DNA of 64,000 nucleotides from positions 62,001 through 126,000 of the IMG/VR virus record IMGVR_UViG_3300032331_000527; one strand, written 5' to 3'. Positions 842 to 63,011 of this stretch are shown here, one piece after another; the stretch's first letter is position 1; every line of letters begins with the position of its first letter. Both the position numbers and the translations under genes were made by a program. Below the pieces are notes generated by a model, which saw nothing but the letters and a program-made list of their open reading frames with translations, was not told the DNA's origin and ran no database searches. Origin of the DNA: a virus.

Positions 842-1680
842 TTAATTTTCCATAGATCTAAGAACTCTATTAGATCTGCTCTTTTGCCAAAACTATAACC
901 AGGTTTCGCCGTTTTCATACCGGAACTCATACTGATCTTTCGAGCTAGCTCACGGAACTCTTTATCGAACTCATATCCCAATATAGGACGATATTCTATC
1001 CCGTACAACTTACACTTCCACATGTCCACAGGTTCTTTGTCATCGTAGATAGCGTCTATCATAGCATAGGCTATCTCTAGTGTGTACATGAAAAATGGAA
1101 TTGTGTACTGTTCGCCTACGAAACACTCGTTATAACTATCCCACTCGTTCATCATTGGACGAAGCCTAACTTCTCCGTCTTCGTCGGGCTTTTCACCTTC
1201 AATCATATGTTCGCCAATAATCAATACGCCATCATTGTCTCTTGCGTATCTACAGGCGTGGATAGAAGGGATTGAAAAAATACCATATCCAAGTATCTTC
1301 TTTATCACTTCCTCATAGTATATACTGAGATACTCGCTATTGTCAAGATTTAATACGATGGGCTCGATATTAAGTTTCTTACACAGCTCAAAGGCGTATC
1401 TAAGTTCTTTTTCGTTACCCGAAGTCTTTACGATAATCACTTCAAAGGGAATATTGTTACGATGGAAACATTGGGTAACGAAAATAGAATCTGCGCCTCC
1501 GCTAAGAGCGACGTAAATCTTCTTGTTTTTTTCGTAGATTTTTTTGGCTGTGTAATCCGCGGCGTCTTGAAAGCTCATCTCTCGAAATGGATATGGGCGC
1601 AAACGAACATAGTACGCCATTCCTTTGACGAGCAATCGTTCGTAGATGTTGGTATCTACCCAGTCATTTTCGGTTGCCAT
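838..1680 (-). CDS. PP-loop ATPase-like protein
   Basis: 280 residues. A PP-loop, VALSGGADS (Ser60-Ser65), follows a short N-terminal region, as in adenylating enzymes of the asparagine synthetase/N-type ATP pyrophosphatase group. Downstream it has an Asp/Glu-rich region and a late Gly-Lys segment, but no zinc-cysteine motif, so a QueC assignment is not supported. The ATG at 1680 was chosen over an in-frame TTG at 1683 because GGAAGGG lies 5 bases upstream. The start overlaps the hydroxylase gene by 17 bases and the stop overlaps the next ATG. It is more divergent than the other two PP-loop proteins of the operon. Target molecule unknown; inference is ATP-dependent activation of a carboxyl or amide group. 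Confidence 0.8.
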   Translation of the reverse strand: MATENDWVDTNIYERLLVKGMAYYVRLRPYPFREMSFQDAADYTAKKIYEKNKKIYVALSGGADSIFVTQCFHRNNIPFEVIIVKTSGNEKELRYAFELCKKLNIEPIVLNLDNSEYLSIYYEEVIKKILGYGIFSIPSIHACRYARDNDGVLIIGEHMIEGEKPDEDGEVRLRPMMNEWDSYNECFVGEQYTIPFFMYTLEIAYAMIDAIYDDKEPVDMWKCKLYGIEYRPILGYEFDKEFRELARKISMSSGMKTAKPGYSFGKRADLIEFLDLWKIK

Positions 1681-2116
1681 CAAATCCCTTCCAAGTACCG
1701 AATATCAAATCCCACACAGGGATAAACACACCATAATTACGAGTCGGGTCTTGGTGATGGATTAGATGCCACTTACCACTGGTAAGGAACGGATAAAGAT
1801 TAATGCGTTTGTTGTGTTCTATAGCTTCCTGAATGAAAGCAGCCCAAACATAATAAGCTACGAATAACCACCAATGACCTGTTACAGCACTAATTATAAA
1901 GGTTGGGATCACCTCTGTCAACCACTGATCTACGGTACTGTTTATCGTATCAAACCAAAGAAATGCGTTCTTCCAGCTCAATCCCTGTATCGTAGCATTC
2001 GTGACTTGAGCGTGATGATCAATATGAAATTGACGCATGAACGGCCACGCATGCGCGAGTCTGTGCATCCAGTAGATTGTGAACGTCCATAGAATGAATA
2101 CAAGGAAATAATGCAT
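1664..2116 (-). CDS. Membrane fatty acid hydroxylase/sterol desaturase superfamily protein
   Basis: 150 residues, hydrophobic, with the histidine signature of integral-membrane di-iron oxygenases: HRLAH (His18, His22), HIDHH (His31, His34, His35), a lone His101 in EAIEHNKR, and HLIHH (His117, His120, His121), ending with the family-typical NYG and DLIFGTW. Family members use O2 and a di-iron centre to hydroxylate lipids or carotenoids at the membrane. All expected histidines are present although the protein is short for the family. The ATG at 2116 overlaps the upstream stop (TGATG). It sits between PP-loop genes, so it probably works with them, for example on a lipid or LPS component; that is inference. 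Confidence 0.85.
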   Translation of the reverse strand: MHYFLVFILWTFTIYWMHRLAHAWPFMRQFHIDHHAQVTNATIQGLSWKNAFLWFDTINSTVDQWLTEVIPTFIISAVTGHWWLFVAYYVWAAFIQEAIEHNKRINLYPFLTSGKWHLIHHQDPTRNYGVFIPVWDLIFGTWKGFDGNRK

Positions 2117-3186
2117 CACTTTATATAGTAGCGACGTGATAGGAAATGGCGTTTGCCGTTAATGAGATCTGTTGTCAGCTGTTTGTTAGATTCTATGTAG
2201 AATTTGAACAACTCAGAATCCGTTTTATTTAGCATGAAACGATCTCGATTACTGAATCCAGTCGATGCAGATTTTTTTGAGAAGTGTCGTAGCGGATGTT
2301 TCACATCTGGATAGATAAGCTTGACTATTATCTCTTCATAGTTTTTACAAAACAACGTATGCTTATTGAAAGTTCTAATGTTACCTCTATCTTCACCTAA
2401 AAATCCATAATAGAAATTCATACATATATGCAACTGCTTACGCATAATCTCTTGTGCGTCTGGATGCGTATAGAAATTCACACGTTCAAAATTTTGATCT
2501 AGATAATTACAACCATAATCCGAAACAGCTATGTCTGTGAAATCGGTATAGACTTTCAACGCCAGCGGATCTAATACGCTCATGCGAGGTTTGTCTGTAC
2601 CAAACACAACAGCAGTTTTCTTTTCGTTTGTTCCTATGAACCGACGAAGATCGTGCCACCAGAGATGCGTTACGCTCGTGAATGCGCCTATATGTTTAAC
2701 ATAATCCGTATTGTATTTTTGTACAAGCGAGAATTTATTGAAGTCTCTGAAATGCTCTGTGTAATCAGCGACAGTGATCTTTGTGTTAGGTAGATGCATA
2801 TCATTAAGAGTAGGAAAGACGTTATGATATAAATCGCCGTTGTGATTATCATCCGTACCTTTCTCAGTATCTTGAGAAAGAGCACCTACTGTCAATATCT
2901 CGTCGATGTGAATGTTGTTGTAGTAGAACGTTTCCAACATGAACGTAGAATCAATTCCGCCAGAGTAGCACAAAATCACATACTCGTAATCATCACGAAT
3001 CTGTTGTGCTCTCTGGCGATATAGTTCTGGAAGAGATGATGTTGGTTCTGTTGTCCAATCTACCTTTACGAACTCACGATCATAGTAGTAGAAAGCGCAT
3101 TGTTTATTAGATCGTTCTGCATCTACGCGATTGGCGTAGAAGTTCTTGTCGTTATCATAATAAAAGATGTTTGGATTTATCAACAT
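2116..3186 (-). CDS. PP-loop ATPase-like protein, 356 residues
   Basis: First gene of the PP-loop/hydroxylase operon. PP-loop CYSGGIDS with Ser75-Ser80, flanked by YVIL before and a TFYYNNIHIDEI helix/strand after. The same layout (aromatic-rich N-terminus, a basic LYRQRAQQIRDDY helix, PP-loop, then NNIxIDEI) recurs in the partial gene at the left edge, which identifies paralogy. The C-terminal half (about residues 200-356) is rich in Phe, Tyr, Arg and Lys, with no recognised motif. ATG at 3186. Family knowledge supports ATP-dependent adenylation; the reaction is not determinable here. It lies just downstream of the tail-fibre genes and may be co-transcribed with them. Confidence 0.8.
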   Translation of the reverse strand: MLINPNIFYYDNDKNFYANRVDAERSNKQCAFYYYDREFVKVDWTTEPTSSLPELYRQRAQQIRDDYEYVILCYSGGIDSTFMLETFYYNNIHIDEILTVGALSQDTEKGTDDNHNGDLYHNVFPTLNDMHLPNTKITVADYTEHFRDFNKFSLVQKYNTDYVKHIGAFTSVTHLWWHDLRRFIGTNEKKTAVVFGTDKPRMSVLDPLALKVYTDFTDIAVSDYGCNYLDQNFERVNFYTHPDAQEIMRKQLHICMNFYYGFLGEDRGNIRTFNKHTLFCKNYEEIIVKLIYPDVKHPLRHFSKKSASTGFSNRDRFMLNKTDSELFKFYIESNKQLTTDLINGKRHFLSRRYYIK

Positions 3187-29661: not shown

Positions 29662-32600
29662 ATGGCCAAAGATACTAGAATTGTAGCAGGAAAAATTCAA
29701 GACACAATATACTATTACGCGAGTGATGGTACGGTTGTTGATGAAAACGGTAAACCCGCGCCTGCTAAATTCGCAGTTATGTTTCCTCCTATGCCTGAAA
29801 AAGTTCCCGAAGCTGTTGCTGAAACTCAACCAAAGAAGAGACGCAAAGGTCTTAAGAACGTAGCCGGTAAGATCAGCAACAGTAAATATTACTACGATCC
29901 TACAGGTGCGATTGTTGATGATCAAGGACAACCTGCTCCAGAACGCATTGCAAAGATGCTTCTGAAGAAAGACGAAACAGCTAATGTTATCAAAGAACAT
30001 CTAGCAAAAACAGCTAAACCTATTAAGACTGCATCGTCAAAAGAAATCAATCAGCTTCGAGCTGAAATCAAAAAAATGGTAGGAGCAACTAAAGATGTTG
30101 CTGCTGCGCATGATGTTGTGCTGAAAAAAGTTCCAGAGGCTACGAAAGGATATCAGAACGTTTTTTCTAATCTAGGAACACAAACACAAATGTTGCTTGA
30201 TAGTTTAATCAAGCAGAACGAAGCGTTCCAAGAAAAAGTAATAGAAACAATAACAGGCGTATCTTCTCCTACGCGAGCAGGCGGAGCTGTTCCTTCTTCT
30301 CCTAAGAAAAAAGGAGGAAAAGTTAAAGCTAGAACAGCAGAACATAAAGCTCGTATTGAAGCACGTGCTGCTAATATAGGTAAGATTCGCGCTAAGAAAA
30401 ATATCGGAACGGCAGCAAAGTATGGTGCCGCTGGTGCAGTCGCAGGAACTGCTGCGGCAGTAGGCGCTTATGGTGTAATGAAAGCGACAGGTGCTGTTAG
30501 TAGCTCAACTCCAGCAGCTCCTAGCGCTCCATCTACTACAGCCACCGGTGCTCCTCCTAGTTCTACTCCAGCGCAAACACAGTCAGCACCAGTTCAAGCA
30601 ACAGGGGCACCACAAGCTCCATCTGTTACAGCTACTCCTGCGCCTCCAGCTCCACAACCAAATTCTTCAGTAGGATTGGGTGGCGGACCAAGCGGACAAA
30701 CACCAGAAGATTCTCCTGCAGCTGAAAAGAAAGATCGTGAAGGTGGTGCCGGAGGAAACACACCTTCTCCTCCAGGCACTCCAGCAAACGTATCTGGAAT
30801 GATGCGCCTCACTACTCCTGGTGGTAGACCGTATGAAGTTGCTGCTCCTTATGCTGCTAACTTCAAAGGATTCGTTGACGAGCTAGAGAACAGTGGATAT
30901 AAGATTAAGAGTATCGGTGGATATGCTAATCGTAATATCGCAGGAACAGGAAAGAAGAGCTATCACTCACTAGGCGTTGCGATCGACATTAATCCTGGTT
31001 CTAATCCACATCTATTCGACGGCAGATTACAAACAGATATGCCTGCGAGTGTTGGCGCGATGGCTGCTAAGTATGGATTAGGTTGGGGTGGGAATTGGCG
31101 TACATCTAAAGACGCTATGCACTTTTCTATGGCATCAGGTGAAGGTGGATCTGTACCTGTAGATAGATCAGGTGCTACTCCTCTCCCAGGTGCTCCTGGT
31201 GCTCCTACAACTACTCCTCAAGCAGGTTCTCCAGAAGCTTCACGTCCTTCTGCTTCAACACCTTCTGCTCCAGGTGCTGCTCCTCGTCCAGTAGATCCAG
31301 GTATAGGATCCCCAGAACGTTCTAATGTTCCGTTAGGTTCTTCTAAAGTATCTGAAGGTGAAGCAGGCGAACAACCAAGAGGTAAAGCTGGATTTAAACA
31401 AATCATGGATTCTGCAGCAAAAGCTGGAGATCCATTTCCAGAAGTAGTAGCAGCTCAATGGGCTATTGAATCTGGATGGGGTAAACACATGACGGGTAAG
31501 AATAACCCGTTTGGTCAAACTGGAGTTGAAGGTAAAGATCCAGGTATAAGAATTCCTACCCCAAGGGATCCAGGTGGGGGAAGTAAATTCTTTAGAAGCT
31601 TTGAATCTATTGACGAAGCAGTTGCGTTTCGTGTTAAGAAATGGGCACCAAAATACTCAGGAGCTAAATCTGCTGAAGAAGCAGTTATGATGCTACAGAA
31701 TTATGGGAGAACTCCTAGATACGCTCAGGGTTATAATAATGACTGGATGTCATATGTGACCAGCATATCTGGTGTTATTCGTGGTCAAGGAATAGATCCT
31801 AAAGTTGCGAAGGGTCCAGGAGGAGGAACTCCAGGGTCTCCACAACCCACACAAACTGCTTCTGGTCCCTCTGGTGCACCTGGTTCTCCGCAAGCTGCTC
31901 TTCCTTCTGCTCTTCCTGCTCCAGGTACAGCACCAACTAACGCGACACAAGCAGCCGTAAATGCTAACGCTGCCGCAGGAGGAGATTCGAGTAAACCTGC
32001 TAATGTTTCATTCGAATCTAGCAAGGTAGACGTATCCAAAGTCGATCCTGAGTTGATGAAGAGATTCTATCAAGCAGCTGCTGCATATGGTGGACCTATT
32101 AGAATCAACTCTGCTTATCGTGACGATGAATATCAAGCACAGCTATGGGTTCGTGGTAATATCCTACATGAGCCAGGAATTCATATTCCAGCGAAGCCTG
32201 AGAAGACGATGACGATTAACTATAAAGGTCAGTCGTACACTGTTCCTGGATCAGGAAAAGGTTCTTCTCATGGAAAAGGACAAGCACTAGACGTAAGTCC
32301 TACAACTGCGCTTGATCCATTTCTAGCTAAGTTTGGTTTGGTTCATCCATTTGGTGCTAATGATCCACCACATATTCAATTGGCTGGAGGAAGTAATTAT
32401 ACTCCTCCCGCGAGCGGGACAGCTGTTGCTGGTGCTCCAGCCGCACCTGGAGTCACTCCTACGAGCGCAGCATCTGGAGCACAAATTGCTTCTGCTGCTA
32501 ATCAAAATGCTGTTCAGCAAGCAGCTTCTCCAGGAAGAATAGTACCTATGATAATTAACAACACTCAAAGATTCAACAACACGAGAACTGTCACGCAACA

Positions 32601-32694
32601 AGCAATGTCATCTGGAGAAAGACCATGTGCTGGATTTAATCCTATGACTATGGTTGCAGGAGTTGCTCTAGGTAAAGTTCTGAGGTTATTTTAA
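29662..32694 (+). CDS. Multi-domain murein hydrolase virion protein (two M15 peptidases and one GH73)
   Basis: 1010 residues. Two N-terminal repeats (AGKIxxxxYYYxxxGxxVDxxGxPAP, about 9-40 and 67-98), then an Ala/Pro linker. Domain 1, about 376-492: M15 metallopeptidase with zinc ligands His435, Asp442, His487. Domain 2, about 578-707: GH73/glucosaminidase, AAQWAIESGWGKH with catalytic Glu603 and NNPFGQ. Domain 3, about 795-915: second M15 domain, SAYRDDEYQ, with His870, Asp877, His904. Linkers are Pro/Ala/Gly/Thr-rich; a small-residue segment near 250-272 could cross a membrane. It can cut peptide and glycan bonds and probably replaces the lysozyme missing from gp5. Position after gp26/gp51 suggests a tail-tube lumen or hub protein. 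Confidence 0.88.
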   Translation: MAKDTRIVAGKIQDTIYYYASDGTVVDENGKPAPAKFAVMFPPMPEKVPEAVAETQPKKRRKGLKNVAGKISNSKYYYDPTGAIVDDQGQPAPERIAKMLLKKDETANVIKEHLAKTAKPIKTASSKEINQLRAEIKKMVGATKDVAAAHDVVLKKVPEATKGYQNVFSNLGTQTQMLLDSLIKQNEAFQEKVIETITGVSSPTRAGGAVPSSPKKKGGKVKARTAEHKARIEARAANIGKIRAKKNIGTAAKYGAAGAVAGTAAAVGAYGVMKATGAVSSSTPAAPSAPSTTATGAPPSSTPAQTQSAPVQATGAPQAPSVTATPAPPAPQPNSSVGLGGGPSGQTPEDSPAAEKKDREGGAGGNTPSPPGTPANVSGMMRLTTPGGRPYEVAAPYAANFKGFVDELENSGYKIKSIGGYANRNIAGTGKKSYHSLGVAIDINPGSNPHLFDGRLQTDMPASVGAMAAKYGLGWGGNWRTSKDAMHFSMASGEGGSVPVDRSGATPLPGAPGAPTTTPQAGSPEASRPSASTPSAPGAAPRPVDPGIGSPERSNVPLGSSKVSEGEAGEQPRGKAGFKQIMDSAAKAGDPFPEVVAAQWAIESGWGKHMTGKNNPFGQTGVEGKDPGIRIPTPRDPGGGSKFFRSFESIDEAVAFRVKKWAPKYSGAKSAEEAVMMLQNYGRTPRYAQGYNNDWMSYVTSISGVIRGQGIDPKVAKGPGGGTPGSPQPTQTASGPSGAPGSPQAALPSALPAPGTAPTNATQAAVNANAAAGGDSSKPANVSFESSKVDVSKVDPELMKRFYQAAAAYGGPIRINSAYRDDEYQAQLWVRGNILHEPGIHIPAKPEKTMTINYKGQSYTVPGSGKGSSHGKGQALDVSPTTALDPFLAKFGLVHPFGANDPPHIQLAGGSNYTPPASGTAVAGAPAAPGVTPTSAASGAQIASAANQNAVQQAASPGRIVPMIINNTQRFNNTRTVTQQAMSSGERPCAGFNPMTMVAGVALGKVLRLF

Positions 32695-37662: not shown

Positions 37663-38102
37663 TTATTGAACTCCTCAGATAAACCAATAGCATCAGCAAC
37701 AGCTGTCAGCGTATTGGGATACGCTTTAGGAACAGTGTATGGAAGAGGATGATTTGTTGGACCACCGACACTACGACGAATGATATCTTCGCTGAGTAGC
37801 TCGGGATAGTAGAGTTCTAGCGCAGCGCAATCGTCGACGCAGTTGAACCAATGATATTCGCCAGGACGAACAGTAGTAAAGTCACCTGCTCTGAGCACAG
37901 TGACATCAACCAAGTCGTAGTCATTTTTTCGTACATGGATTTCCAGAGTTCCAGAAATAACGAAGAATCCGTTCCATTTGTGTTCATGCTTATGCTCCGA
38001 ACATTTGTAGCCTGCGTTGACGTTAATCTTATGCAGTTCGACTATAGGATTCTGAATAATTACGCTTGTGTCTCCCCAGACTTTTCCTGTGAAGTTGCCC
38101 AT
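37659..38102 (-). CDS. Cupin-domain protein, sugar-phosphate type
   Basis: 147 residues. Cupin motif 1 appears as CSEHKHEHKWNGFFVISG (His ligands 36, 38 and 40 region) followed by TLEIHV; motif 2 as AGDFTTVRPGEYHWFNC. The style is like mannose-6-phosphate isomerase type II C-terminal/sugar cupins. It overlaps KdsA by 43 bases, which suggests a joint role in nucleotide-sugar or Kdo metabolism. Catalysis not provable; could be an isomerase/epimerase or a binding protein. Confidence 0.75.
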   Translation of the reverse strand: MGNFTGKVWGDTSVIIQNPIVELHKINVNAGYKCSEHKHEHKWNGFFVISGTLEIHVRKNDYDLVDVTVLRAGDFTTVRPGEYHWFNCVDDCAALELYYPELLSEDIIRRSVGGPTNHPLPYTVPKAYPNTLTAVADAIGLSEEFNK

Positions 38103-38941
38103 GATGTACCCTTTCTCATATTTAATGAACGTTTGCTGATATAATCCAACTCTACTAAATCATATACTAATTTCTCGAACGTGTCAAGATAAATCATATT
38201 GGGTCCATCACTTGGCGCTTCAGTCGGATTCTCGTGGACTTCCATGAACACAGCGGAGACGCCAACAGAAACAGCAGCTCTAGCCATAAGAGTAACATAC
38301 TTACGCTCGCCCGATGAACTCGTACCATGAGCGCCAGGAAGTTGAACTGCGTGAGTGCAATCCATAACGACCTGATTGGTGTATTGCTTCATAACATCAA
38401 GGGAACGAAAGTCTACGACGAGATTGTTATAGCCAAATGTTGTGCCTCGCTCTGTGAACATATACTTTTCACAACCAAACTTCCGAAGCTTCTCGGCTAC
38501 ATTCCGCATCTCCCACGGAGACATGAACTGTCCTTTCTTCACGTTGACTGGCTTACCACTTTCCGCAGCCGCGCGAAGAAGATCAGTCTGACGACAAAGG
38601 AACGCAGGAATCTGAATGATATCAGCATTAACTGCATCACAGTGCCAAGGTTCGTGAACGTCCGTGAGAACCTCGATTCCTCGAGCACGGACGGCCTCCA
38701 TTCCGTAAAACGCCTCGTCGAAGCCGCTACCTCTTTTACTATCTGCGGAACTTCGATTCGCTTTATCGAAAGAGGTCTTATAGATGAAATTGATCTCTCT
38801 GTCGAATGCTTGACCTACTGCTTTGCAATCGGCTTGCAAATGTTCAGCCATCATAACTGCATGTTCCGTATTCTCAAATAGACACGGTCCAGCAATGATA
38901 CTTAGTGGTTTGTCGTTATGACAATTATCATAGAAGCTCAT
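38060..38941 (-). CDS. kdsA: 3-deoxy-D-manno-octulosonate 8-phosphate synthase
   Basis: 293 residues from ATG 38941 (an upstream GTG is in frame). Condenses phosphoenolpyruvate with arabinose-5-phosphate to give Kdo-8-phosphate for LPS inner core. Signatures: AGPCLFEN, YKTSFDKANRSSADS, VNVKKGQFMSPWEM, TERGTTFGYNNLVVDFRS, VMDCTHAVQLPG. Cys20 of GPC occupies the position that marks the metal-dependent class (the E. coli enzyme has Asn). Full length compared with the 284-residue E. coli enzyme, apparently intact. Unusual for a phage; probably modifies host LPS or supplies Kdo for another glycan. An internal promoter serves downstream genes. Confidence 0.95.
   Translation of the reverse strand: MSFYDNCHNDKPLSIIAGPCLFENTEHAVMMAEHLQADCKAVGQAFDREINFIYKTSFDKANRSSADSKRGSGFDEAFYGMEAVRARGIEVLTDVHEPWHCDAVNADIIQIPAFLCRQTDLLRAAAESGKPVNVKKGQFMSPWEMRNVAEKLRKFGCEKYMFTERGTTFGYNNLVVDFRSLDVMKQYTNQVVMDCTHAVQLPGAHGTSSSGERKYVTLMARAAVSVGVSAVFMEVHENPTEAPSDGPNMIYLDTFEKLVYDLVELDYISKRSLNMRKGTSWATSQEKSGETQA
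38159..38187 (-). promoter_or_regulatory. Intragenic sigma-70-like promoter upstream of cupin and gp33
   Basis: TTGACA (38187-38182), 17 bases, TATGAT (38164-38159) on the minus strand, inside the 3' part of kdsA. It would drive the cupin, gp33 and following genes independently. Confidence 0.55.
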
Positions 38942-38943
38942 TT

Positions 38944-39615
38944 TTAATCCCACAATGCGCGATAGTATTTACCGAAAAGAATGAATCCATTTGCTTTACG
39001 CTTGTCGAACTTAGCATTCTCTTCGTGATACACTTTCCAAGCCTCAACATTTTCTGGTGAATCGTCGAATGGAATTGCATCCATTATCCGACGAGTATAC
39101 GCACTAGGACTATCAGGAGCATCAGGATCTTCGTTTGCTTCCTGATTGAAAGTCCAAATCAATTCATCCAAAATCCAATCCCAACGAGCTTCGTGTAAGC
39201 TATCTACACCGCCGTATTTCTTGTCTTCTTCAGTTAGAGGCGGAGCAGAAGTCGAACGCAAATGCTCGGGAACGTCTTCGTCATCTACGAAGGGAGAACC
39301 GTGCTTAGTAGCTTTCAGTTGGATAAGCATAGGATGAATGATAATCGAAAGTGTATGATCCATTGACCACGTGTCGTAATTATCGAGCTTCACTTTGACA
39401 GTGCGCTTGCGCTTATCGTGTATCCAGTTGCAGAATTTGTGAACCCACGTTTCTGAGAGCCAGTCGCTGAACTTTTCTTTTGCTTTATAATCCCAACGCT
39501 CGTATCGAGGATCGTCATCATTCATGATGCCGTTGCGCTTAATCCAAAAGAATAGGATATCAGCGATTTGATATGCGCCGTACCAGGTCAGATAGGGTCC
39601 AATGTTTACTTTCAT
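38944..39615 (-). CDS. Conserved phage protein of unknown function (GPY...GKYYxxLWD family)
   Basis: 223 residues. It has the pattern of a widely distributed myovirus protein: N-terminal KVNIGPYLTWYGAYQIADIL, YDTWSMDHTLSIIIHPML, TKHGSPFVDDEDVPEHLRST, ARWDWILDELIWTFNQE and C-terminal NGFILFGKYYRALWD. No function known to me. It is Trp/Asp-rich, cytosolic, with no signal sequence. Lies immediately upstream of kdsA with a 2-base gap. Confidence 0.85.
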   Translation of the reverse strand: MKVNIGPYLTWYGAYQIADILFFWIKRNGIMNDDDPRYERWDYKAKEKFSDWLSETWVHKFCNWIHDKRKRTVKVKLDNYDTWSMDHTLSIIIHPMLIQLKATKHGSPFVDDEDVPEHLRSTSAPPLTEEDKKYGGVDSLHEARWDWILDELIWTFNQEANEDPDAPDSPSAYTRRIMDAIPFDDSPENVEAWKVYHEENAKFDKRKANGFILFGKYYRALWD

Positions 39616-40408: not shown

Positions 40409-40942
40409 TTATGGATTAGTAGGAGATTTGGGTACATCGAATACGAACGTAATACGTTCAACTTCCGAAATGTTTTTCGCAGAGTGCATCTTTTTGTTAT
40501 CGAACCAAAAGAACGTTCCTGGACTAATTATATGTTCTTCACCGTCTACTTCATACAGATACTCTCCTTGGAGAGCAAAATGATATCTGTCACGCGAAAG
40601 ATAATACGTTCCGTCATCAATATGTCGTCCCATACTTCCACCGACCTGAAGTCGAAAGAACGCTGCGCGAGAAGTTTGCTCGATGTTCCAAGATCTCAAC
40701 CATTCGTGAATCTCGGTATACTTATCAAACAAAGGAGTGTTTTGCTGCTGTTCACAATTCTTGGGATTAATACGCTTCGACGGTACAACAGCCATAACGA
40801 GTGGAAGAAATCCATATGGATCCAGATCGCCAGCGATATTATCGTAAGTAGAAACAGCTTTCCAGTCGCCAGGATTATCTAATACCTGTTGAAGCACAGG
40901 CTGATATAATTCTTCGTAACTGATAAATCTAAAATTGGTCAT
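40409..40942 (-). CDS. Aspartyl/asparaginyl beta-hydroxylase-like 2OG-Fe(II) oxygenase
   Basis: 177 residues from ATG 40942. The double-stranded beta-helix core shows FRLQVGGSMGRHIDDGTYYL (His-x-Asp, first iron ligands), RYHFALQGEYLYEVDGEE, PGTFFWFDNKKMHSAKN (distal His) and a following Arg (ERITFVFD). The family hydroxylates Asp/Asn side chains or related substrates using 2-oxoglutarate; phage members are frequent in T4-like genomes with unknown targets. It lies immediately downstream of the tmRNA gene, so it may share the tmRNA promoter by read-through. Confidence 0.82.
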   Translation of the reverse strand: MTNFRFISYEELYQPVLQQVLDNPGDWKAVSTYDNIAGDLDPYGFLPLVMAVVPSKRINPKNCEQQQNTPLFDKYTEIHEWLRSWNIEQTSRAAFFRLQVGGSMGRHIDDGTYYLSRDRYHFALQGEYLYEVDGEEHIISPGTFFWFDNKKMHSAKNISEVERITFVFDVPKSPTNP

Positions 40943-41001
40943 AATCAATCCTGTGTGAAACGGGCCCGTTCTGTTCCAAGGTGGAGCCCATACCCGTGAG
41001 A

Positions 41002-41043
41002 TTACGCCGCTAGGCGAGTCTCGATGAGTGCATTATCGTTTGC
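41002..41043 (-). other. tmRNA tag reading frame ANDNALIETRLAA
   Basis: Resume codon GCA at 41043, then AAC GAT AAT and so on, to TAA at 41004-41002. Starts ANDN like many alphaproteobacterial tags and ends LAA, the usual ClpXP/ClpAP-type degron. The interior ALIETR segment may differ from the host tag. Confidence 0.9.
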
Positions 41044-41112
41044 ATCTAGAACGTCGCTTTGGTCTACTCGTACCTTTACTACAATCCGTCGAACCTGTTT
41101 CGCCCCCATCAA

Positions 41113-41204
41113 AGATACACAATATCAAGCACCCTCTTGACCGCAGCCACTCACTTCCGTCGAAGCTATTCAAACGTGGTAGGACCCGTCGGCATTGTGT
41201 ATCT
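41113..41204 (-). repeat. Inverted repeat bracketing the tmRNA intervening segment
   Basis: AGATACACAAT (41204-41194) and ATTGTGTATCT (41123-41113) are perfectly complementary over 11 bp. They sit one base from the acceptor CCA and five bases from the coding 5' end, so in precursor RNA they extend the acceptor stem and present the processing sites. Confidence 0.85.
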
Positions 41205-41275
41205 ATGGTGGAGGCGTCGGGTACTGCCCCCGAGTCCGAATCGTCTATTCTGAACGCCTCAACAACCTTAGCGTA

Positions 41276-41410
41276 TTATTTATAATACCACTTTACGGGT
41301 GGATTGTCAAGAAGGAATTTCCTAGCCTGTGTCTCAGACCAGTTATTGATACAGATATATCGCGGGCAATCCCAGTAGATAAAAGCCCACGAGCTATAGT
41401 GCTCGCTCAT
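41276..41410 (-). CDS. 44-residue protein overlapping the tmRNA promoter
   Basis: ATG at 41410 overlaps the stop of the exonuclease gene (ATGA), with GGAG 5 bases upstream. The 44-residue product is Trp/Tyr-rich (HYSSWAFIYWDCPRYICINNW) and ends WYYK. Its last 12 codons contain the -35 (TTGACA) and -10/late elements of the tmRNA promoter, the stop codon lying inside TATTATAAATAA. No family recognised; may be a genuine small gene or a leader-like relic. Confidence 0.65.
   Translation of the reverse strand: MSEHYSSWAFIYWDCPRYICINNWSETQARKFLLDNPPVKWYYK
41277..41310 (-). promoter_or_regulatory. Overlapping early and late promoters for tmRNA
   Basis: TTGACA (41310-41305), 17-base spacer, TATTAT (41287-41282) forms a sigma-70-like promoter. 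TATAAATA (41284-41277), the exact T4-type late octamer, overlaps its -10. Both would start transcription just before the tmRNA acceptor piece, so expression may continue from early to late infection. Confidence 0.7.
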
Positions 41411-44614: not shown

Positions 44615-44785
44615 TCATATAAGTTTCCTACTGGGTATAATTAACAACCAAGGTCTTGGCTTTTTCATAATATCTTCTACTGTAACTTTCAAGCAGCCTC
44701 TACGATAATAGTTACGATACCTATTCGTAATTGATATTACTGGTTGAAATGTATCTTGATTGATTCCAGCTTGCTGTTTCATCAT
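44615..44785 (-). CDS. Small basic protein, 56 residues
   Basis: ATG at 44785 overlaps the stop of the BI-1 family gene (ATGA) with GGAG 8 bases upstream. The product has a central basic patch (NRYRNYYRRGCLKV) and KKPRPWLLIIPSRK; pI clearly basic. It fills an otherwise empty gap before the glycosylase-like gene. No family recognised; possibly nucleic-acid or host-factor binding. Confidence 0.65.
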   Translation of the reverse strand: MMKQQAGINQDTFQPVISITNRYRNYYRRGCLKVTVEDIMKKPRPWLLIIPSRKLI

Positions 44786-45483
44786 TTTCTATCTCCTAGC
44801 AACTGGAGCAGGTTCACAAAGATATTGATGAAGTCTAGGTAAAGATTGAGAGCGCCAAAAATACCAGCCTTGCGGATTTCTTCGTCATCATTTAGTTCAT
44901 AATACTTCTCTTTGAGATCCTGCATGTCATATGCAGTGAAGCCAACAAAGATAAGGACACCGATAACACTGATGGCAAAGGCCATAACGCTACTCTGTAG
45001 AAACAGATTGACGACACCAGCAATCATCAAACCAATAGCACCCATCATGAGAAACGATCCCATGCTACTCAGGTCACGCTTAGTTGTATATCCATACAAT
45101 GCAGTAGCACCAAATGTTGCAGCACTAATGAAGAACACATTAGCAATGCTGCCCAGCTTGAATATCATAAAGATGCTACTAAGGCTCAGGCCCATCAAAG
45201 CAGAGAAACAATAAAGCATAGTCCTTGCTGTGCTTGATGACATACTATCTGCCATGTACGAGAACAAAAACACGAATGCAAGAGGCGCAAAGATAGCAAC
45301 CCACTTGAATGGTGTTCCCCAAATGGCTGCACCAATCTCAGGTGTGAGACCAATGTATGCGCTGACAACCGCACTGATTAGTAGTGCGATTCCCATGTGA
45401 TTGAACACACCAACAAGATATGTTCTGAGACCCCAATCAACGACTGGTGCTGGATATGCTTGTGATTCGTTTTGATAAGACAT
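44782..45483 (-). CDS. Bax inhibitor-1 (BI-1/TMBIM, YccA-like) membrane protein
   Basis: 233 residues, seven hydrophobic segments starting near residues 23, 60, 88, 112, 143, 165 and 210. The C-terminal ALNLYLDFINIFVNLLQLLG and FVGFTAYDMQDLKEKY are BI-1/YccA family hallmarks; acidic residues in these match the di-aspartyl pH-sensing site. Bacterial YccA modulates the FtsH protease; others leak calcium or protons. A phage copy could tune host FtsH or membrane stress. Start ATG 45483. Coupled to the small basic gene downstream. Confidence 0.92.
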   Translation of the reverse strand: MSYQNESQAYPAPVVDWGLRTYLVGVFNHMGIALLISAVVSAYIGLTPEIGAAIWGTPFKWVAIFAPLAFVFLFSYMADSMSSSTARTMLYCFSALMGLSLSSIFMIFKLGSIANVFFISAATFGATALYGYTTKRDLSSMGSFLMMGAIGLMIAGVVNLFLQSSVMAFAISVIGVLIFVGFTAYDMQDLKEKYYELNDDEEIRKAGIFGALNLYLDFINIFVNLLQLLGDRK

Positions 45484-57806: not shown

Positions 57807-58385
57807 CTATGTATGCTTCAGAAGATTTTCATATGTGTTGAAATACACATTTTTACCAAATAAAGGATTCACTTTAAAGTCATTCGGGAAAATGAAAATG
57901 AAGTCAATGTCAGGATTGCTATTAGTCAGCCACTGAACATAGCGGATTCGTCCAGGATTATCAGCTGCGTTGGCACGAACTTCCATACCATAGTTGTTCG
58001 TGCCATCATAGACGTTGGAAACAGACTGCTTGTTATCAGTAGCCAAGAAATCGAATCCAACGCAAATCAGCTGATTGAATTCCATCTTAATAGCTTCACG
58101 CATAGCATTGACGCCAGCATTACTGCGTGGACGTCCAATGTTACACTCTGCTGGTTCCCAGCGTTCATCAACCGGAGGCACAAGAAAACGCATGGACGGA
58201 AAATCCGAGCATTCTATTTCGGAAATGATACCATCATCAATGCTAACGATGAAATCAGGAAAAGAGTAGTCAGGATAATCACGATATAGCGCATTACAAC
58301 CAAACACCGTTCCATAAGGTTTAAATCTGGTAAGGTCTATCCCCTTCCGAGAAGTGCCATTACCGATGATAAAAGCTGTGTTCAT
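57807..58385 (-). CDS. Rossmann-like sugar/pterin transferase (MptE/DUF115-like)
   Basis: 192 residues. Begins AFIIGNGTSRKGIDLTRF, followed by GTVFGCNALYRDYPDYSFPD, IVSIDDGIISEI and ICVGFDFLATDN. The GNGxS start, Rossmann strand and central VSIDD acidic pair match MptE-like/DUF115 and sialyltransferase-like proteins of phages. Likely a nucleotide-sugar-using transferase in the modification block; substrate unknown. Confidence 0.7.
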   Translation of the reverse strand: MNTAFIIGNGTSRKGIDLTRFKPYGTVFGCNALYRDYPDYSFPDFIVSIDDGIISEIECSDFPSMRFLVPPVDERWEPAECNIGRPRSNAGVNAMREAIKMEFNQLICVGFDFLATDNKQSVSNVYDGTNNYGMEVRANAADNPGRIRYVQWLTNSNPDIDFIFIFPNDFKVNPLFGKNVYFNTYENLLKHT

Positions 58386-58870
58386 ACTTTAGCCTTCTTT
58401 GATTTAGCGGGCTTTGATTCCTCCACATCTGGAGCTTGCTCAACCCAGTGACCAGCAAGATTCGGAAACGCTTCCTTCACAGCTGAAATTCGAATGTTCA
58501 GCTTCTTGTTCTTCATTCGCAAAAGCAGTTCAGCATCGCGACGATCAATAGATTCCAAGACCTGAATGAAAAGAACTTCACGACGGAGTTGTGCTACCTC
58601 ACGGCCTTCATTACTATCAACGAAGTAGATAAGTTTGCGACACTCCGTATAGAAACGACCTTCCTGATCAGCAGAATCGGGAAGAGGAGTATAGGGCGGA
58701 TCACCAGCAGGGAGTAACCAAGTGCAACCTGGATCCAAACCATATCCAAGAACAGTCTTCAAAGCAGACGAGCTATGAAGCTTAAGAAAGTCAACTTGTC
58801 TTGCGTGCGTCGTTTGTGCTTCAATCTTAGCAATAATCTGAGCCAAACATTTACTTGTATCAATCGCCAT
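58382..58870 (-). CDS. Conserved T4-like phage protein (DUF6433-type)
   Basis: 162 residues. DFLKLHSSSALKTVLGYGLD, CTWLLPAGDPPYTPLPDSAD, YTECRKLIYFVD, LRREVLFIQVLESIDRRDAE and AVKEAFPNLAGH match the DUF6433 proteins of T4-like phages. Lys-rich C-terminus (KPAKSKKAKV). Function unknown. Overlaps the next gene by 4 bases. Confidence 0.82.
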   Translation of the reverse strand: MAIDTSKCLAQIIAKIEAQTTHARQVDFLKLHSSSALKTVLGYGLDPGCTWLLPAGDPPYTPLPDSADQEGRFYTECRKLIYFVDSNEGREVAQLRREVLFIQVLESIDRRDAELLLRMKNKKLNIRISAVKEAFPNLAGHWVEQAPDVEESKPAKSKKAKV

Positions 58871-59177
58871 CGTTATTCTCCGTAAGGGGTGATTCGTAGT
58901 CTATACTGTTTATGTAGGAAAATTTCTTGTCGTCATCCCACAACTTGAGATAATCATTATCTTCATTGAAAATCTTAAGATACTCATCACGACTGATTTC
59001 GTAGTGAGTAATGATAGGTGATGGTTCCAAGTGTTTCTGACTGAACTCATGGAACTCGAAATTTTGTTCTTGCATAATAACTTCGTCGAGCGCATGGTCA
59101 ATGTCGTCTTCTACTTCCACGACATAGCGCATACGATACTGAGAAAGCACTTCAACCATAACAAGCTTCTTAGTCAT
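58860..59177 (-). CDS. Hypothetical acidic protein
   Basis: 105 residues. MTKKLVMVEVLSQYRMRYVV, VEDDIDHALDEVIMQEQNFE, HYEISRDEYLKIFNEDND. Acidic, alpha/beta-like, similar in layout to small proteins beside MazG in T4-like phages. Overlaps neighbours at both ends. Confidence 0.7.
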   Translation of the reverse strand: MTKKLVMVEVLSQYRMRYVVEVEDDIDHALDEVIMQEQNFEFHEFSQKHLEPSPIITHYEISRDEYLKIFNEDNDYLKLWDDDKKFSYINSIDYESPLTENNDGD

Positions 59178-59587
59178 TAGATATCACCTTCCTTACGATT
59201 TTCGGAATAGAATGCATCGAACGTGCCGCCAGGATATCTAGCCTGAAGCTTATCCACGTTTCCTGCGATTACTTCATTCGGGTCAATCTGCAACGCATTA
59301 CACGCATTAGTCCAGTACCAAATCACATCACCGAGTTCCTTGATAAGATGCTGGCGAGTTTCCTCGGTGTATGGCTTGCCCTGAAACAAAACCTTCTTGA
59401 GGATTTCTTGGGCCTCGCCAGCTTCACTAGTCAAGCCAATCATTGCAGTCAGAAGCAATGGCACATTGATGACTGTATCCTTATCATAATGTATTTGCTT
59501 CACTCTGTCAAGAAATTCCGCACATACGCGACTCTCTTTGCTCGTTACAGCCATAACGAACTCAGCATACTTAGCCATATCAATCAT
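59177..59587 (-). CDS. mazG: MazG-like nucleotide pyrophosphohydrolase
   Basis: 136 residues. LTSEAGEAQEILKKVLFQGK (E-x2-E metal site), LIKELGDVIWYWTNACNALQ (E-x3-D), then NVDKLQARYPGGTFDAFYSE. All-alpha NTP-PPase/MazG pattern. Phage MazG hydrolyses NTPs, dNTPs or (p)ppGpp; here it may trim dCTP/dUTP pools or alarmones. ATG at 59587; an internal ATG at codon 4 is an alternative. Confidence 0.9.
   Translation of the reverse strand: MIDMAKYAEFVMAVTSKESRVCAEFLDRVKQIHYDKDTVINVPLLLTAMIGLTSEAGEAQEILKKVLFQGKPYTEETRQHLIKELGDVIWYWTNACNALQIDPNEVIAGNVDKLQARYPGGTFDAFYSENRKEGDI
59483..59511 (-). promoter_or_regulatory. Intragenic sigma-70-like promoter in mazG
   Basis: TTGACA (59511-59506), 17 bases, TATGAT (59488-59483), inside the mazG coding sequence. 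May serve the downstream 105-residue gene or be incidental. Confidence 0.45.
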
Positions 59588-59880
59588 TCTTCTAGTTCTC
59601 CTGTAGGGATAAGTATTTTTGTTACGTTCAACTCATCTAGATCGCGATGGACTATTGGAAGCGGAATCCACTCTGGCGAACCCTGACGCTTATATTGAAT
59701 CTCATGGCGAACCACATCCCATATCTGCTTTTCTGCCGTAGTCCAATCCCAATAGTTTACTGCACGAATGTCGATGATAGCGTTATCAAGTTTGGTCTTG
59801 AGAGTGCGAATCTCCTTTTCCATCGTAGCGAGTTCGCGCTCAATGCGACTTCTATCCCATGACCAACTATCATTCATCAC
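59584..59880 (-). CDS. Hypothetical coiled-coil protein
   Basis: 98 residues. RIERELATMEKEIRTLKTKL forms a short coiled coil; the C-terminus has PLPIVHRDLDELNVTKILIP. Coupled to mazG (4-base overlap) and the lipoprotein gene. No family recognised. Confidence 0.7.
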   Translation of the reverse strand: MMNDSWSWDRSRIERELATMEKEIRTLKTKLDNAIIDIRAVNYWDWTTAEKQIWDVVRHEIQYKRQGSPEWIPLPIVHRDLDELNVTKILIPTGELEE

Positions 59881-60584
59881 TTCACCACATATCGCTTATT
59901 GATTACACTTACATTTAGTTCTTTATGCGCAACTTCAAATTTATCATATCCAACCTTGAGCTGTTTCCAGAAATCCATATTAGGATTCTTTGAATGAGTG
60001 AACATATTGAATTCGTTCATACGGAATGGATACATATGAATCTGAATCATCTTTTGTCCTGCCTTCAAAGAATCACGAATCGCTGCAAAGAGATCTTGCA
60101 TAGGAACGTCTTTAATCGCAAAGCAACCAGAGCTGTCGCATCCGCCGTGAATCATAATGCTTCCACCTGTACGACCATGAGCGCGATCGTACTCATTAGG
60201 ATATCCTGTGTTGAATGAGAGATATCTAATGCTATTGAAATTGAGATTATCAAAAGCAGTGCTATAGAAACCCTCAGGTGACTGACGATCACCTAACTTC
60301 TTCTTAGGACCAAGCTCTCCGCTGTATGCACACACGCTAAACGTATGCACGAGCGCATACTCGCCAGACGCAGTCTTACGCCAGAATTCCAGTTCATTCG
60401 ATTCTTTGAAGATACGAATGAGCACTGGACTGTTCTTAGTAGCACCTACTCTCTCGCTAGCCTCAACCAGCGAGAGAGTCTGGGGAGCATGACCTTTTCT
60501 ACGATCAGTGAACTCGCCGTATTGAATTCCTTGCGCACATCCCGCGAGCGCGAGCATTGCGACACCAAGAAAGAGCTTTTTCAT
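59877..60584 (-). CDS. YafK/DpaA-like L,D-transpeptidase-family lipoprotein
   Basis: 235 residues. Lipoprotein signal MKKLFLGVAMLALAGC with lipobox Cys16. Catalytic YkuD domain: VLIRIFKESNELEFW, CAYSGELGPKKKLGDRQSPE, GFYSTAFDNLN, NTGYPNEYDRAHGRTGGSIM, and the active site HGGCDSSGCFAI with His146 and nucleophile Cys154. The order matches E. coli YafK (DpaA/LdtF), which cleaves Lpp from peptidoglycan rather than making cross-links. In an alphaproteobacterial host it could release the outer membrane from the wall during lysis or remodel the wall. Should localise to the periplasm, lipid-anchored. Confidence 0.88.
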   Translation of the reverse strand: MKKLFLGVAMLALAGCAQGIQYGEFTDRRKGHAPQTLSLVEASERVGATKNSPVLIRIFKESNELEFWRKTASGEYALVHTFSVCAYSGELGPKKKLGDRQSPEGFYSTAFDNLNFNSIRYLSFNTGYPNEYDRAHGRTGGSIMIHGGCDSSGCFAIKDVPMQDLFAAIRDSLKAGQKMIQIHMYPFRMNEFNMFTHSKNPNMDFWKQLKVGYDKFEVAHKELNVSVINKRYVVK

Positions 60585-60585
60585 A

Positions 60586-61449
60586 TTAGAATTCCGAGAT
60601 AGATTCTGTTAAGTTGCGCAGCCGATACTTGATGAAGTAATTCAAGATCTTGCTCCGTGGATTACGCTCATACTTATCAAACTCTTCTACGATTTCTTTC
60701 TGAAGTTCATCAGGAACCAAGTCCAGATCAACCATCATCTTGTTTCTATTATAGTTTCTAAGCATCTCTGGAGTGCAATATGCTTCTGGCATCATAAGAG
60801 TCCACTCTTCGAGCTTCTTCTTAGGGAGAGGCTTCTGTCGTTTACCCGCTACGATAAACGTGTCGTCTTCGGAAAGGAAATTAGGTACACCGTCACCGCT
60901 GTCTCCTTGCAAGATATGATATTCTTTGAATCTTGCAGGATTGACGTCGGGCGCAATGAACTTCTTAGCGATGGGGGAATACTGCGTAATGTTTCCAAAC
61001 AGCTGGAGCTGCATGAAATCCTTATCGCCAGAGATGATGAGAATCTTCTCAGCTGTGTTCAGGAACGAACCATTAGCGTTACAGATAGAACCGATAATGT
61101 CGTCGGCCTCAGCACGATCGAAGCACAACACGGGATAAGGCATGTTGTCGCGAATCTCCTCGCGAATCTTGTGCAAGGATACAAAGATAGTCTTCCAGTC
61201 GTGATCGGAATTGGCTCGCGCTTTCTTGCGATTAGCCTTGTAATGAGGAAACACTTCACGACGCCAATAAGAAGGACCGTCGCAGCATATTACAAGCTCG
61301 CCATACTCTTTGCCAAACTTCTGCTTGTACATGCGAAAGCTCGACAGAACCATATGGCGGACCGTATCTTCGTCGAGCTTCTGTTCATTATTTGATAGCT
61401 GCATCATGATATTTGAAATCATGACTTGGCTGAAATCCACGAGTATCAT
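60586..61449 (-). CDS. rnh: T4-type RNase H / 5'-3' exonuclease
   Basis: 287 residues. MILVDFSQVMISNIMM (first Asp), ELVICCDGPSYWRREVFPHY, CFDRAEADDIIGSICN, IISGDKDFMQLQLF and ILQGDSGDGVPNF (H3TH region) are the metal-binding signatures of the FEN-1/T4 RNase H family. It removes RNA primers and 5' flaps in lagging-strand synthesis. T4 RNase H is 305 residues. Promoter 61473-61501. Confidence 0.93.
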   Translation of the reverse strand: MILVDFSQVMISNIMMQLSNNEQKLDEDTVRHMVLSSFRMYKQKFGKEYGELVICCDGPSYWRREVFPHYKANRKKARANSDHDWKTIFVSLHKIREEIRDNMPYPVLCFDRAEADDIIGSICNANGSFLNTAEKILIISGDKDFMQLQLFGNITQYSPIAKKFIAPDVNPARFKEYHILQGDSGDGVPNFLSEDDTFIVAGKRQKPLPKKKLEEWTLMMPEAYCTPEMLRNYNRNKMMVDLDLVPDELQKEIVEEFDKYERNPRSKILNYFIKYRLRNLTESISEF

Positions 61450-61472: not shown

Positions 61473-61501
61473 ATTATATCAGGTCGTGGATAGGTTGTCA
61501 A
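61473..61501 (-). promoter_or_regulatory. Sigma-70-like promoter with extended -10 for RNase H
   Basis: TTGACA (61501-61496), 17 bases, TATAAT (61478-61473) preceded by TGA (extended -10). Starts about 24 bases before the RNase H ATG. Confidence 0.85.
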
Positions 61502-62982: not shown

Positions 62983-63011
62983 ATTATATCATAGCGGCTT
63001 TCAAATGTCAA
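62983..63011 (-). promoter_or_regulatory. Sigma-70-like promoter with extended -10
   Basis: TTGACA (63011-63006), 17 bases, TATAAT (62988-62983) preceded by TGA. The same TGATATAATGTT core as the RNase H promoter. Precedes the 378-residue gene and overlaps the end of the glycosyltransferase gene. Confidence 0.85.

What the first reader, a model, noticed from the sequence alone, without database searches (positions are those of the whole stretch)
59877..60584. Phage lipoprotein related to YafK/DpaA, which detaches outer-membrane proteins from peptidoglycan
Lipobox Cys16 plus an intact YkuD active site (His146, Cys154) in a sequence order resembling YafK. E. coli DpaA cuts the Lpp-peptidoglycan link. 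Rhizobiales link beta-barrel outer-membrane proteins to the wall through L,D-transpeptidases, so a phage hydrolase of this type could act as a new kind of spanin-like or envelope-loosening factor, or alter superinfection.
Basis: partly seen in the sequence, partly recalled or inferred. Interest (0 to 1): 0.7.

Follow-up and report, generated by a model that had tools for sequence, protein, structure and literature searches.

The report
Phage-borne DpaA-like outer-membrane untethering enzyme
A virus of bacteria carries its own version of a bacterial enzyme family whose E. coli member unhooks the outer membrane from the cell wall; this copy belongs to a small virus-only branch with a changed active-site rim, so its exact target and purpose still need a bench test.

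Summary
In detail: minus strand, 59877-60584, 235 aa, lipobox Cys16, His146, Cys154. The protein belongs to the YafK/DpaA family, not to cross-linking L,D-transpeptidases: NCBIfam LdtF_DpaA_YafK E 2.5e-60; model against E. coli DpaA 8IKR Z 28.7, 1.3 A over 188 residues, next best Csd6 Z 14.3. DpaA's essential Lys83 is kept (Lys94); Ala156 stands where transpeptidases have Arg. It stays below the DpaA equivalog cut-off (203.6 of 365 bits).

The gene follows RNaseH behind a perfect sigma70-type promoter, in a 139-kb T4-like phage with a curli operon and no detected spanin.

Amidase action on wall-linked outer-membrane proteins is likely but untested; a spanin-like role is only a hypothesis, weakened by the early-type promoter.

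The parts
59877..60584 (-). DpaA-like (YafK family) lipoprotein gene, 235 aa, P0001
60537..60584 (-). Signal peptide up to lipobox Cys16 (LAGC, next residue Ala)
   Evidence: sequence; lipobox scans
60303..60305 (-). Codon of Lys94, equivalent of DpaA Lys83 (K83A inactive in E. coli DpaA, PMC10653827)
60225..60227 (-). Codon of Arg120, equivalent of DpaA Tyr109 (leaving-group side of the cleft), the position that sets the viral clade apart
60123..60149 (-). Active-site motif His146 to Cys154 (HGGCDSSGC)
60586..61449 (-). T4-type RNaseH (phrog_107), first gene of the operon; ends 1 base before the DpaA-like gene starts
61473..61501 (-). Perfect sigma70-type promoter TTGACA-17-TATAAT with TG before the second hexamer, 52 nt from its first base to the RNaseH start codon
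59584..59880 (-). 98-aa ORF overlapping the end of the DpaA-like gene, no family found
59177..59587 (-). MazG-like pyrophosphatase, same operon
58382..58870 (-). phrog_461 protein, which directly follows RNaseH in Melnitz and lies near RNaseH in 70 of 80 RNaseH loci examined
29662..32694 (+). 1010-aa protein with an M15/VanY-type motif (assigned by motif) and probably the glucosaminidase domain found in its set: the candidate wall hydrolase of this phage

Best explanation
The gene encodes a secreted, lipid-anchored cysteine amidase of the YafK/DpaA family. Made from a host-type (early) promoter together with RNaseH, it is exported, lipidated at Cys16 and, with Ala after the Cys, probably carried to the outer membrane facing the wall. 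Cys154/His146 attack the amide between the L-centre of meso-diaminopimelate in peptidoglycan stem peptides and a covalently attached envelope protein; Lys94 holds the diaminopimelate carboxylate. The altered leaving-group side (Arg120 for Tyr109, Ser142 for Tyr131) fits a partner other than the C-terminal Lys of Lpp, most simply the N-terminally linked beta-barrel proteins of Alphaproteobacteria. Cutting these tethers over the infection loosens the outer membrane, which would ease envelope rupture in a phage with no detectable spanin. Shown here: family, fold, catalytic and Lys residues, lipobox, operon and promoter match, viral clade, changed cleft. Inferred: activity, substrate, location, timing, purpose.
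For: Family and fold: NF040599 E 2.5e-60; E. coli LdtB, LdtD and LdtE give no NF040599 hit at E<=0.01; DpaA 8ikr Z 28.7, 1.3 A over 188 residues, then LD-carboxypeptidases (Csd6 14.3, Pgp2 14.0, Bd1075 11.7), transpeptidases at most 10.5. In 397 Pseudomonadota genomes the listed scores fall in two modes, 153 bits and up and 124 and below; the phage protein lies in the upper one. Residues: Lys83, His135 and Cys143 kept in all 132 rows; Ala at Cys+2 in 9 of 9 viral clade rows, where DpaA-like proteins have Ala or Asn and transpeptidases Arg (PMC8263019 section 11). Purifying selection. Nearest cellular kin Hyphomicrobiales, a group without Lpp that links outer-membrane proteins to the wall (PMC10787603 passages); DpaA-like enzymes are proposed, untested, to cut these links (PMC8263019 sections 11-12). 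No o-spanin candidate by a scan that found 3 of 3 known ones.
Against: No activity data. Score below the DpaA equivalog cut-off of 365 bits. Tyr109 and Tyr131, whose Ala mutants keep 0.7% and 4% of E. coli DpaA activity (PMC10653827), are Arg and Ser here, so the enzyme might have lost the amidase activity or gained another. Early-type promoter and lack of a late-type motif do not fit a late lysis gene. The host, its Lpp status and its wall-linked proteins are unknown. The contig may be incomplete, and spanin detection by pattern is imperfect. Five close relatives (75-77% RNaseH identity) lack the gene at this place, so it is not needed there.
Confidence: 0.5

Rival explanations
1. Same amidase chemistry, but the purpose is envelope remodelling early in infection rather than lysis: making room for the phage-encoded CsgG pore and curli-like proteins, shedding vesicles, or changing wall-linked outer-membrane proteins that serve as receptors (superinfection exclusion).
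For: Perfect sigma70-type promoter and no late-type motif. CsgG (PF03783) in 6 of 13 viral records with the DpaA-like gene against 1 of 37 RNaseH-bearing records examined. A curli operon in phage Melnitz has been proposed to work with a wall autolysin (PMC9004378 passages).
Against: The CsgG link is one-way: 0 of 50 other CsgG contigs searched have the gene, and per base of contig the excess is not significant (6 of 7 on 54% of the bases, p 0.09); rows are related to each other. The genes are not neighbours. No receptor or vesicle data.
Confidence: 0.3
2. An LD-carboxypeptidase or trimmer of stem peptides (D-Ala, Gly or other residue at position 4), like Csd6/Pgp2 or the Gly activity of DpaA.
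For: Csd6, Pgp2 and Bd1075 are the next best folds. PMC8263019 says some DpaA-like proteins may be carboxypeptidases. DpaA removes Gly at position 4 (PMC10653827).
Against: The D-Ala pocket pair of Csd6 (Tyr133, Trp158), which is Tyr109/Met133 in DpaA, is Arg120/Met144 here. Half the structural Z of the DpaA match.
Confidence: 0.13
3. A cross-linking L,D-transpeptidase that strengthens the wall or attaches proteins.
For: YkuD-type His...Cys motif; annotation of relatives as 'murein L,D-transpeptidase family protein'.
Against: Ala at Cys+2 instead of Arg; Pfam YkuD barely above cut-off; E. coli LDTs do not match the family model; transpeptidase folds at most Z 10.5 against 28.7.
Confidence: 0.03
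4. A captured bacterial gene of no present use to the phage (passenger in a variable cargo slot).
For: The slot behind RNaseH holds other small ORFs in close relatives.
Against: dN/dS 0.10 and 0.13 between phage copies; catalytic residues kept in the viral clade; a viral clade spread over T4-like phage records of 139 to 361 kb and smaller contigs.
Confidence: 0.04

Closest known systems
E. coli DpaA (LdtF, YafK; P0AA99, PDB 8IKR)
   Same: Single YkuD-type core, 45% identity, 1.3 A over 188 residues; Lys83, His135, Cys143, Met133, Ala145 kept.
   Different: Lipobox in the phage protein (E. coli DpaA has an ordinary signal, by my reading); Gln86, Arg108, Tyr109, Lys130 and Tyr131 are Leu, Ile, Arg, Gly and Ser; below the equivalog cut-off.
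Hyphomicrobiales YafK-like proteins ('murein L,D-transpeptidase family protein')
   Same: Closest cellular relatives, 42-52% identity; many also lipoproteins (58 of 80 by a crude pattern).
   Different: 77 of 78 closed ORFs have a tail of 96 aa or more after the core; viral ones at most 13 aa. Tyr, Phe, Leu or His at the Tyr109 position, never Arg or Glu (88 of 88).
Legionella Lpg1514 (YafK family; serine-dependent beta-lactam turnover)
   Same: YafK scaffold with the same Cys and Lys (PMC13400389, part 1 of 4 read).
   Different: Its Ser-dependent activity was not tested here; whether the conserved Ser118 of the phage protein is the same Ser is not established.
Phage spanins (lambda Rz/Rz1, T7 18.5/18.7, T4 PseT.2/PseT.3)
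   Same: An envelope-directed phage lipoprotein.
   Different: Spanins fuse membranes and have no enzyme domain (recalled); this is a YkuD-type enzyme with no inner-membrane partner found.
PHROG 17304
   Same: The phage protein matches it at E 1.1e-52.
   Different: That family carries no functional label; this report proposes one.

Membership tests
YafK/DpaA family (NF040599-like clade) | Family-level sequence similarity above other YkuD proteins | tested here: met
   203.6 bits, E 2.5e-60; upper mode of the scores listed for 397 genomes
YafK/DpaA family (NF040599-like clade) | DpaA fold: single-domain compact YkuD variant | tested here: met
   Model pLDDT 92.1; 8ikr Z 28.7, next 14.3
YafK/DpaA family (NF040599-like clade) | Catalytic Cys and His, Lys83, no Arg at Cys+2 | tested here: met
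   Cys154, His146, Lys94, Ala156
YafK/DpaA family (NF040599-like clade) | Phylogenetic place with YafK | tested here: met
   Within the Hyphomicrobiales-type group, 99/96. Cross-linking LDTs were not in the tree; they were set apart by profile and fold
DpaA equivalog (Lpp-peptidoglycan amidase sensu stricto) | Score over the curated equivalog cut-off of 365 bits | tested here: not met
   203.6 bits
DpaA equivalog (Lpp-peptidoglycan amidase sensu stricto) | Leaving-group aromatics Tyr109 and Tyr131 | tested here: not met
   Arg120 and Ser142
DpaA equivalog (Lpp-peptidoglycan amidase sensu stricto) | Hydrolysis of the mDAP-protein amide | not testable with these tools
   needs purified enzyme and PG-protein substrate
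Cross-linking L,D-transpeptidases | Arg two residues after the catalytic Cys | tested here: not met
   Ala156; criterion from PMC8263019
LD-carboxypeptidases Csd6/Pgp2/Bd1075 | Aromatic pair of the D-Ala pocket (Tyr133/Trp158 of Csd6) | tested here: not met
   Arg120 and Met144, through the DpaA equivalences Tyr109/Met133 given in PMC10653827
Spanins | Lipobox | tested here: met
   LAGC, Cys16
Spanins | No enzymatic core; an inner-membrane partner or C-terminal TM segment (recalled) | tested here: not met
   YkuD-type core over most of the protein; no TM segment found by a hydropathy scan
Outer-membrane lipoprotein | Transport to the outer membrane | not testable with these tools
   Ala after Cys16 is compatible (rule recalled from E. 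coli)

The most novel reading that the evidence does not exclude
T4-like and jumbo phages carry a phage-specific clade of DpaA-like amidases, cut down to the catalytic core, mostly lipid-anchored and with a re-tooled leaving-group pocket, which release wall-attached outer-membrane proteins of their hosts: an enzymatic way of dealing with the outer membrane in phages that lack spanins.
Probability: 0.25. Interest if true: 0.85.

Novelty: new variant of a known kind. Interest (0 to 1): 0.55.

Why it matters
Whether DpaA-like enzymes of bacteria without Lpp detach wall-linked beta-barrel proteins is stated as an open question in PMC8263019. A compact viral enzyme, single-domain and free of the long tails of its cellular kin, is a handy protein for that test, and its changed Tyr109 site gives a direct structure-specificity test. 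If it does cut such links, it would also be an enzymatic, non-spanin way for a phage to weaken the outer membrane. It gives PHROG 17304, which carries no functional label, a testable function.

Tried and rejected
Cross-linking transpeptidase: rejected by profile, motif and fold. Phage-database homologues: the two INPHARED hits (MT836220, OR851105) are unverified scaffolds without annotation; OR851105 is close to enterobacterial DpaA and is probably host DNA, so neither was counted as viral. Close CsgG-DpaA partnership: looked promising (6 of 13 records; 1 of 37 control records; Fisher p 0.0007) but 0 of 50 other CsgG contigs have the gene (of the 80 CsgG loci, 28 were not examined and 2 were left out because already known to carry it) and the per-base test gives p 0.09; kept as suggestive only. 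Endolysin of the known relatives: no homologue of Melnitz's GH108 enzyme or SagA-like cell wall hydrolase found. The BFVD structure search gave no close match in its 50 rows. A first genome-contig scan with the single protein found no relative. A last scan with the viral clade alone returned 12 loci, all on contigs already known. Late-promoter search: 11 TATAAATA sites, 9 of 11 within 80 nt before an ORF, none at this operon; 11 is about the number that base composition alone would give (my estimate), so this motif is weak evidence.

Rows dropped: the tree used 30 of the 80 Hyphomicrobiales-set loci plus 8 plasmid rows, 5 of 14 cut-off-passing phylum loci, and left out near-copies L002/L021, L025, L027 and L031. 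L032, L033 and L034 were left out of the second tree as long branches; in the first, L032 and L033 fell outside the viral clade and L034 inside it on a very long branch. The count of nine clade members without the Tyr109 aromatic leaves out L034 (Tyr there) as well as L032 and L033 (Tyr, Phe): with all 12 viral rows it is 9 of 12. The loose lipobox scan gave 24 rows in this phage, many of them not in the ORF set.

Papers: PMC10653827 outline, Results and Discussion; PMC8263019 passages and sections 11-12; PMC13400389 part 1 of 4; PMC9004378 and PMC10787603 passages; all others search listings only. Godessart 2021 and Sandoz 2021 were seen only as cited there. No phage-encoded YafK/DpaA appeared in the listings (titles and abstract starts only; 30 of 55, 12 of 12, 20 of 26 and 20 of 94 papers listed); this is no proof of absence in print.

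Full report
1. What is there. The finding is one gene on the minus strand, window 60584 to 59877, 235 aa. It starts with a lipoprotein signal (MKKLFLGVAMLALAGC, Cys16) and holds His146 and Cys154 in a YkuD-type motif. It matches NCBIfam LdtF_DpaA_YafK at 203.6 bits, E 2.5e-60, E. coli DpaA in the PDB at E 1.1e-50, PHROG 17304 of unknown function at E 1.1e-52, but Pfam YkuD at only 23.9 bits. Two other viral contigs carry it at 97 and 96% identity, with dN/dS 0.10 and 0.13 against the window's copy.

2. Where it lies. The window is bases 62001-126000 of a virus record of 139,058 bases. The phage is T4-like: its tail sheath, terminase, capsid and polymerase match Methylophilales phage Melnitz and other T4-like phages (major capsid 64%, terminase 54%, DNA polymerase 51% to Melnitz). 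Its tmRNA is of the alphaproteobacterial permuted type (RF01849, 100 bits), but Melnitz, whose host is not an alphaproteobacterium, also has a two-piece tmRNA (PMC9004378 passages), so this does not fix the host. The gene follows T4-type RNaseH by one base and overlaps a 98-aa ORF, then MazG and others. A perfect sigma70-type promoter, TTGACA-17-TATAAT with TG, lies before RNaseH at 61501-61473, its first base 52 nt from the start codon; the phage has 33 such sites with at most one mismatch against a mean of 3.9 in 20 shuffles. No TATAAATA late-type motif lies at this operon. The operon is therefore predicted to be early. In Melnitz RNaseH is followed by a phrog_461 protein and a GH108 enzyme; in 80 RNaseH loci of viral contigs the phrog_461 protein is near RNaseH in 70 of 80, and the DpaA-like gene only in the one contig already known. 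In five close relatives it is absent from this slot, which holds other small ORFs or none; in L213 and L214 these look like small membrane proteins. It is a variable cargo slot.

3. Family test. E. coli LdtB, LdtD and LdtE do not match NF040599 at E<=0.01, while E. coli DpaA scores 428 bits and viral relatives L022, L024, L028 and L030 193 to 218 bits. In 397 Pseudomonadota genomes, 229 match at E<=0.001; listed scores fall into 153 bits and up or 124 and below, and 14 genomes pass the cut-off. The AlphaFold2 model (pLDDT 92.1, pTM 0.87, 46 sequences) superposes on DpaA 8ikr with Z 28.7, 1.3 A over 188 residues, 45% identity; Csd6 14.3, Pgp2 14.0, Bd1075 11.7, transpeptidases at most 10.5. So it is a YafK/DpaA-family protein, but not a DpaA equivalog by NCBI's own cut-off (365 bits).

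4. A viral branch. A scan of IMG/VR with a family alignment gave 15 loci; a second scan with the viral clade alone gave 12, none on new contigs. In a 73-row tree ten viral rows form one starred clade (99/98) inside a group of Hyphomicrobiales-type YafK proteins (99/96); two further viral rows (L032, L033) lie outside. Without the three long rows, nine viral rows are one clade, 99/98. The viral proteins end at the catalytic core (tail at most 13 aa in 11 of 11), whereas 77 of 78 closed ORFs of the Hyphomicrobiales set run on for 96 aa or more. Records with the gene include two with a T4-like terminase besides this one, of 183 and 361 kb; for the smaller contigs viral origin rests on IMG/VR's classing.

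5. The cleft. PMC10653827 (Results, Discussion) reports for E. coli DpaA that K83A is inactive, Y109A keeps 0.7% and Y131A 4%; Tyr109 packs on the Lys side chain of Lpp in a docked model. In 132 aligned rows Lys83, His135 and Cys143 never change. Tyr109 is Tyr, Phe, Leu or His in all 120 cellular rows, but Arg (3), Glu (4) or deleted (2) in the nine clade rows; the three distant viral rows (L032-L034) keep Tyr or Phe. Tyr131 is Tyr in 16 of 16 enterobacterial rows, 7 of 88 Hyphomicrobiales rows and none of the nine. Between Lys94 and Cys154 the numbering offset to DpaA is a constant 11, so the placing of Arg120 on Tyr109 needs no gap. I infer that the leaving group differs from Lpp Lys. Rhizobiales lack Lpp and link outer-membrane proteins through an N-terminal Ala-Asp motif (PMC10787603 passages), and DpaA-like enzymes were proposed, untested, to cut such links (PMC8263019). 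The carboxypeptidase D-Ala pocket pair is absent (Arg120, Met144), and so is the transpeptidase Arg (Ala156).

6. Lysis context. In 45 otherwise unassigned ORFs, Pfam finds one GTA-type holin, one M15/VanY and one glucosaminidase match; the M15-type motif lies in the 1010-aa protein at 29662-32694. A strict lipobox scan that recovers lambda Rz1, T7 18.7 and T4 PseT.2 (3 of 3) gives four ORFs in this phage, of which only CsgG and the DpaA-like protein look real. Both spanin types need a lipoprotein part (recalled), so no spanin candidate was found. The phage carries a curli-type operon, csgF, csgG, curlin-repeat, FecR, curlin-repeat and CHASE2-cyclase, in the order of Melnitz, for which a role in lysis has been proposed (PMC9004378 passages). 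CsgG is in 6 of 13 records with the DpaA-like gene and 1 of 37 control records, but the gene is in 0 of 50 other CsgG records.

7. Verdict. What is new is a viral clade of cut-down, mostly lipid-anchored DpaA-like enzymes with a changed leaving-group site. I rate it a new variant of a known kind.

Noticed in passing
virus record G000:C1:53097-58377 (outside the window, before its start); locus L006: Curli-type operon: CsgF, CsgG, two curlin-repeat proteins, FecR protein and a CHASE2-cyclase, in the same order as in phage Melnitz.
   Followed up: partly
window 40911-41298, minus strand: Permuted tmRNA of alphaproteobacterial type (RF01849, 100 bits) with tag ANDNALIETRLAA, next to a tRNA-Gln.
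   Followed up: partly
window 61473-61501 and 62983-63011, minus strand, and elsewhere in G000: Perfect or near-perfect sigma70 promoters: 33 sites with at most one mismatch in 139 kb, mean 3.9 in shuffles.
   Followed up: partly
L212, L213, L214, L215, L219, just after RNaseH: A variable cargo slot between RNaseH and MazG holds different small ORFs, some with a membrane segment by eye, in close relatives.
   Followed up: partly
window 38060-38953, minus strand: Protein with a KDO-8-phosphate/DAHP synthase-like sequence (PF00793 was found in one member of the scanned set; assignment to this ORF is by reading the motif).
   Followed up: no
window 44782-45483, minus strand: Multi-pass membrane protein, probably the Bax1-I (Bax inhibitor-1 type) match; assignment by sequence reading.
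   Followed up: no
window 1664-2119, minus strand, and G000:C1:60672-61607: Fatty-acid hydroxylase-type protein and a TctC-type solute-binding protein carried by the phage.
   Followed up: no
MT836220 (L010), OR851105 (L011), OR851715: Small unverified 'phage' records that look like bacterial DNA: OR851105 carries an enterobacterial-type DpaA, OR851715 a CsgG.
   Followed up: partly
L029, L030, L031: Viral copies (L030 on a 361-kb contig) without a lipobox; the two aligned, L029 and L030, also lack four residues of the L2 loop, so the clade itself varies in anchoring and cleft.
   Followed up: no
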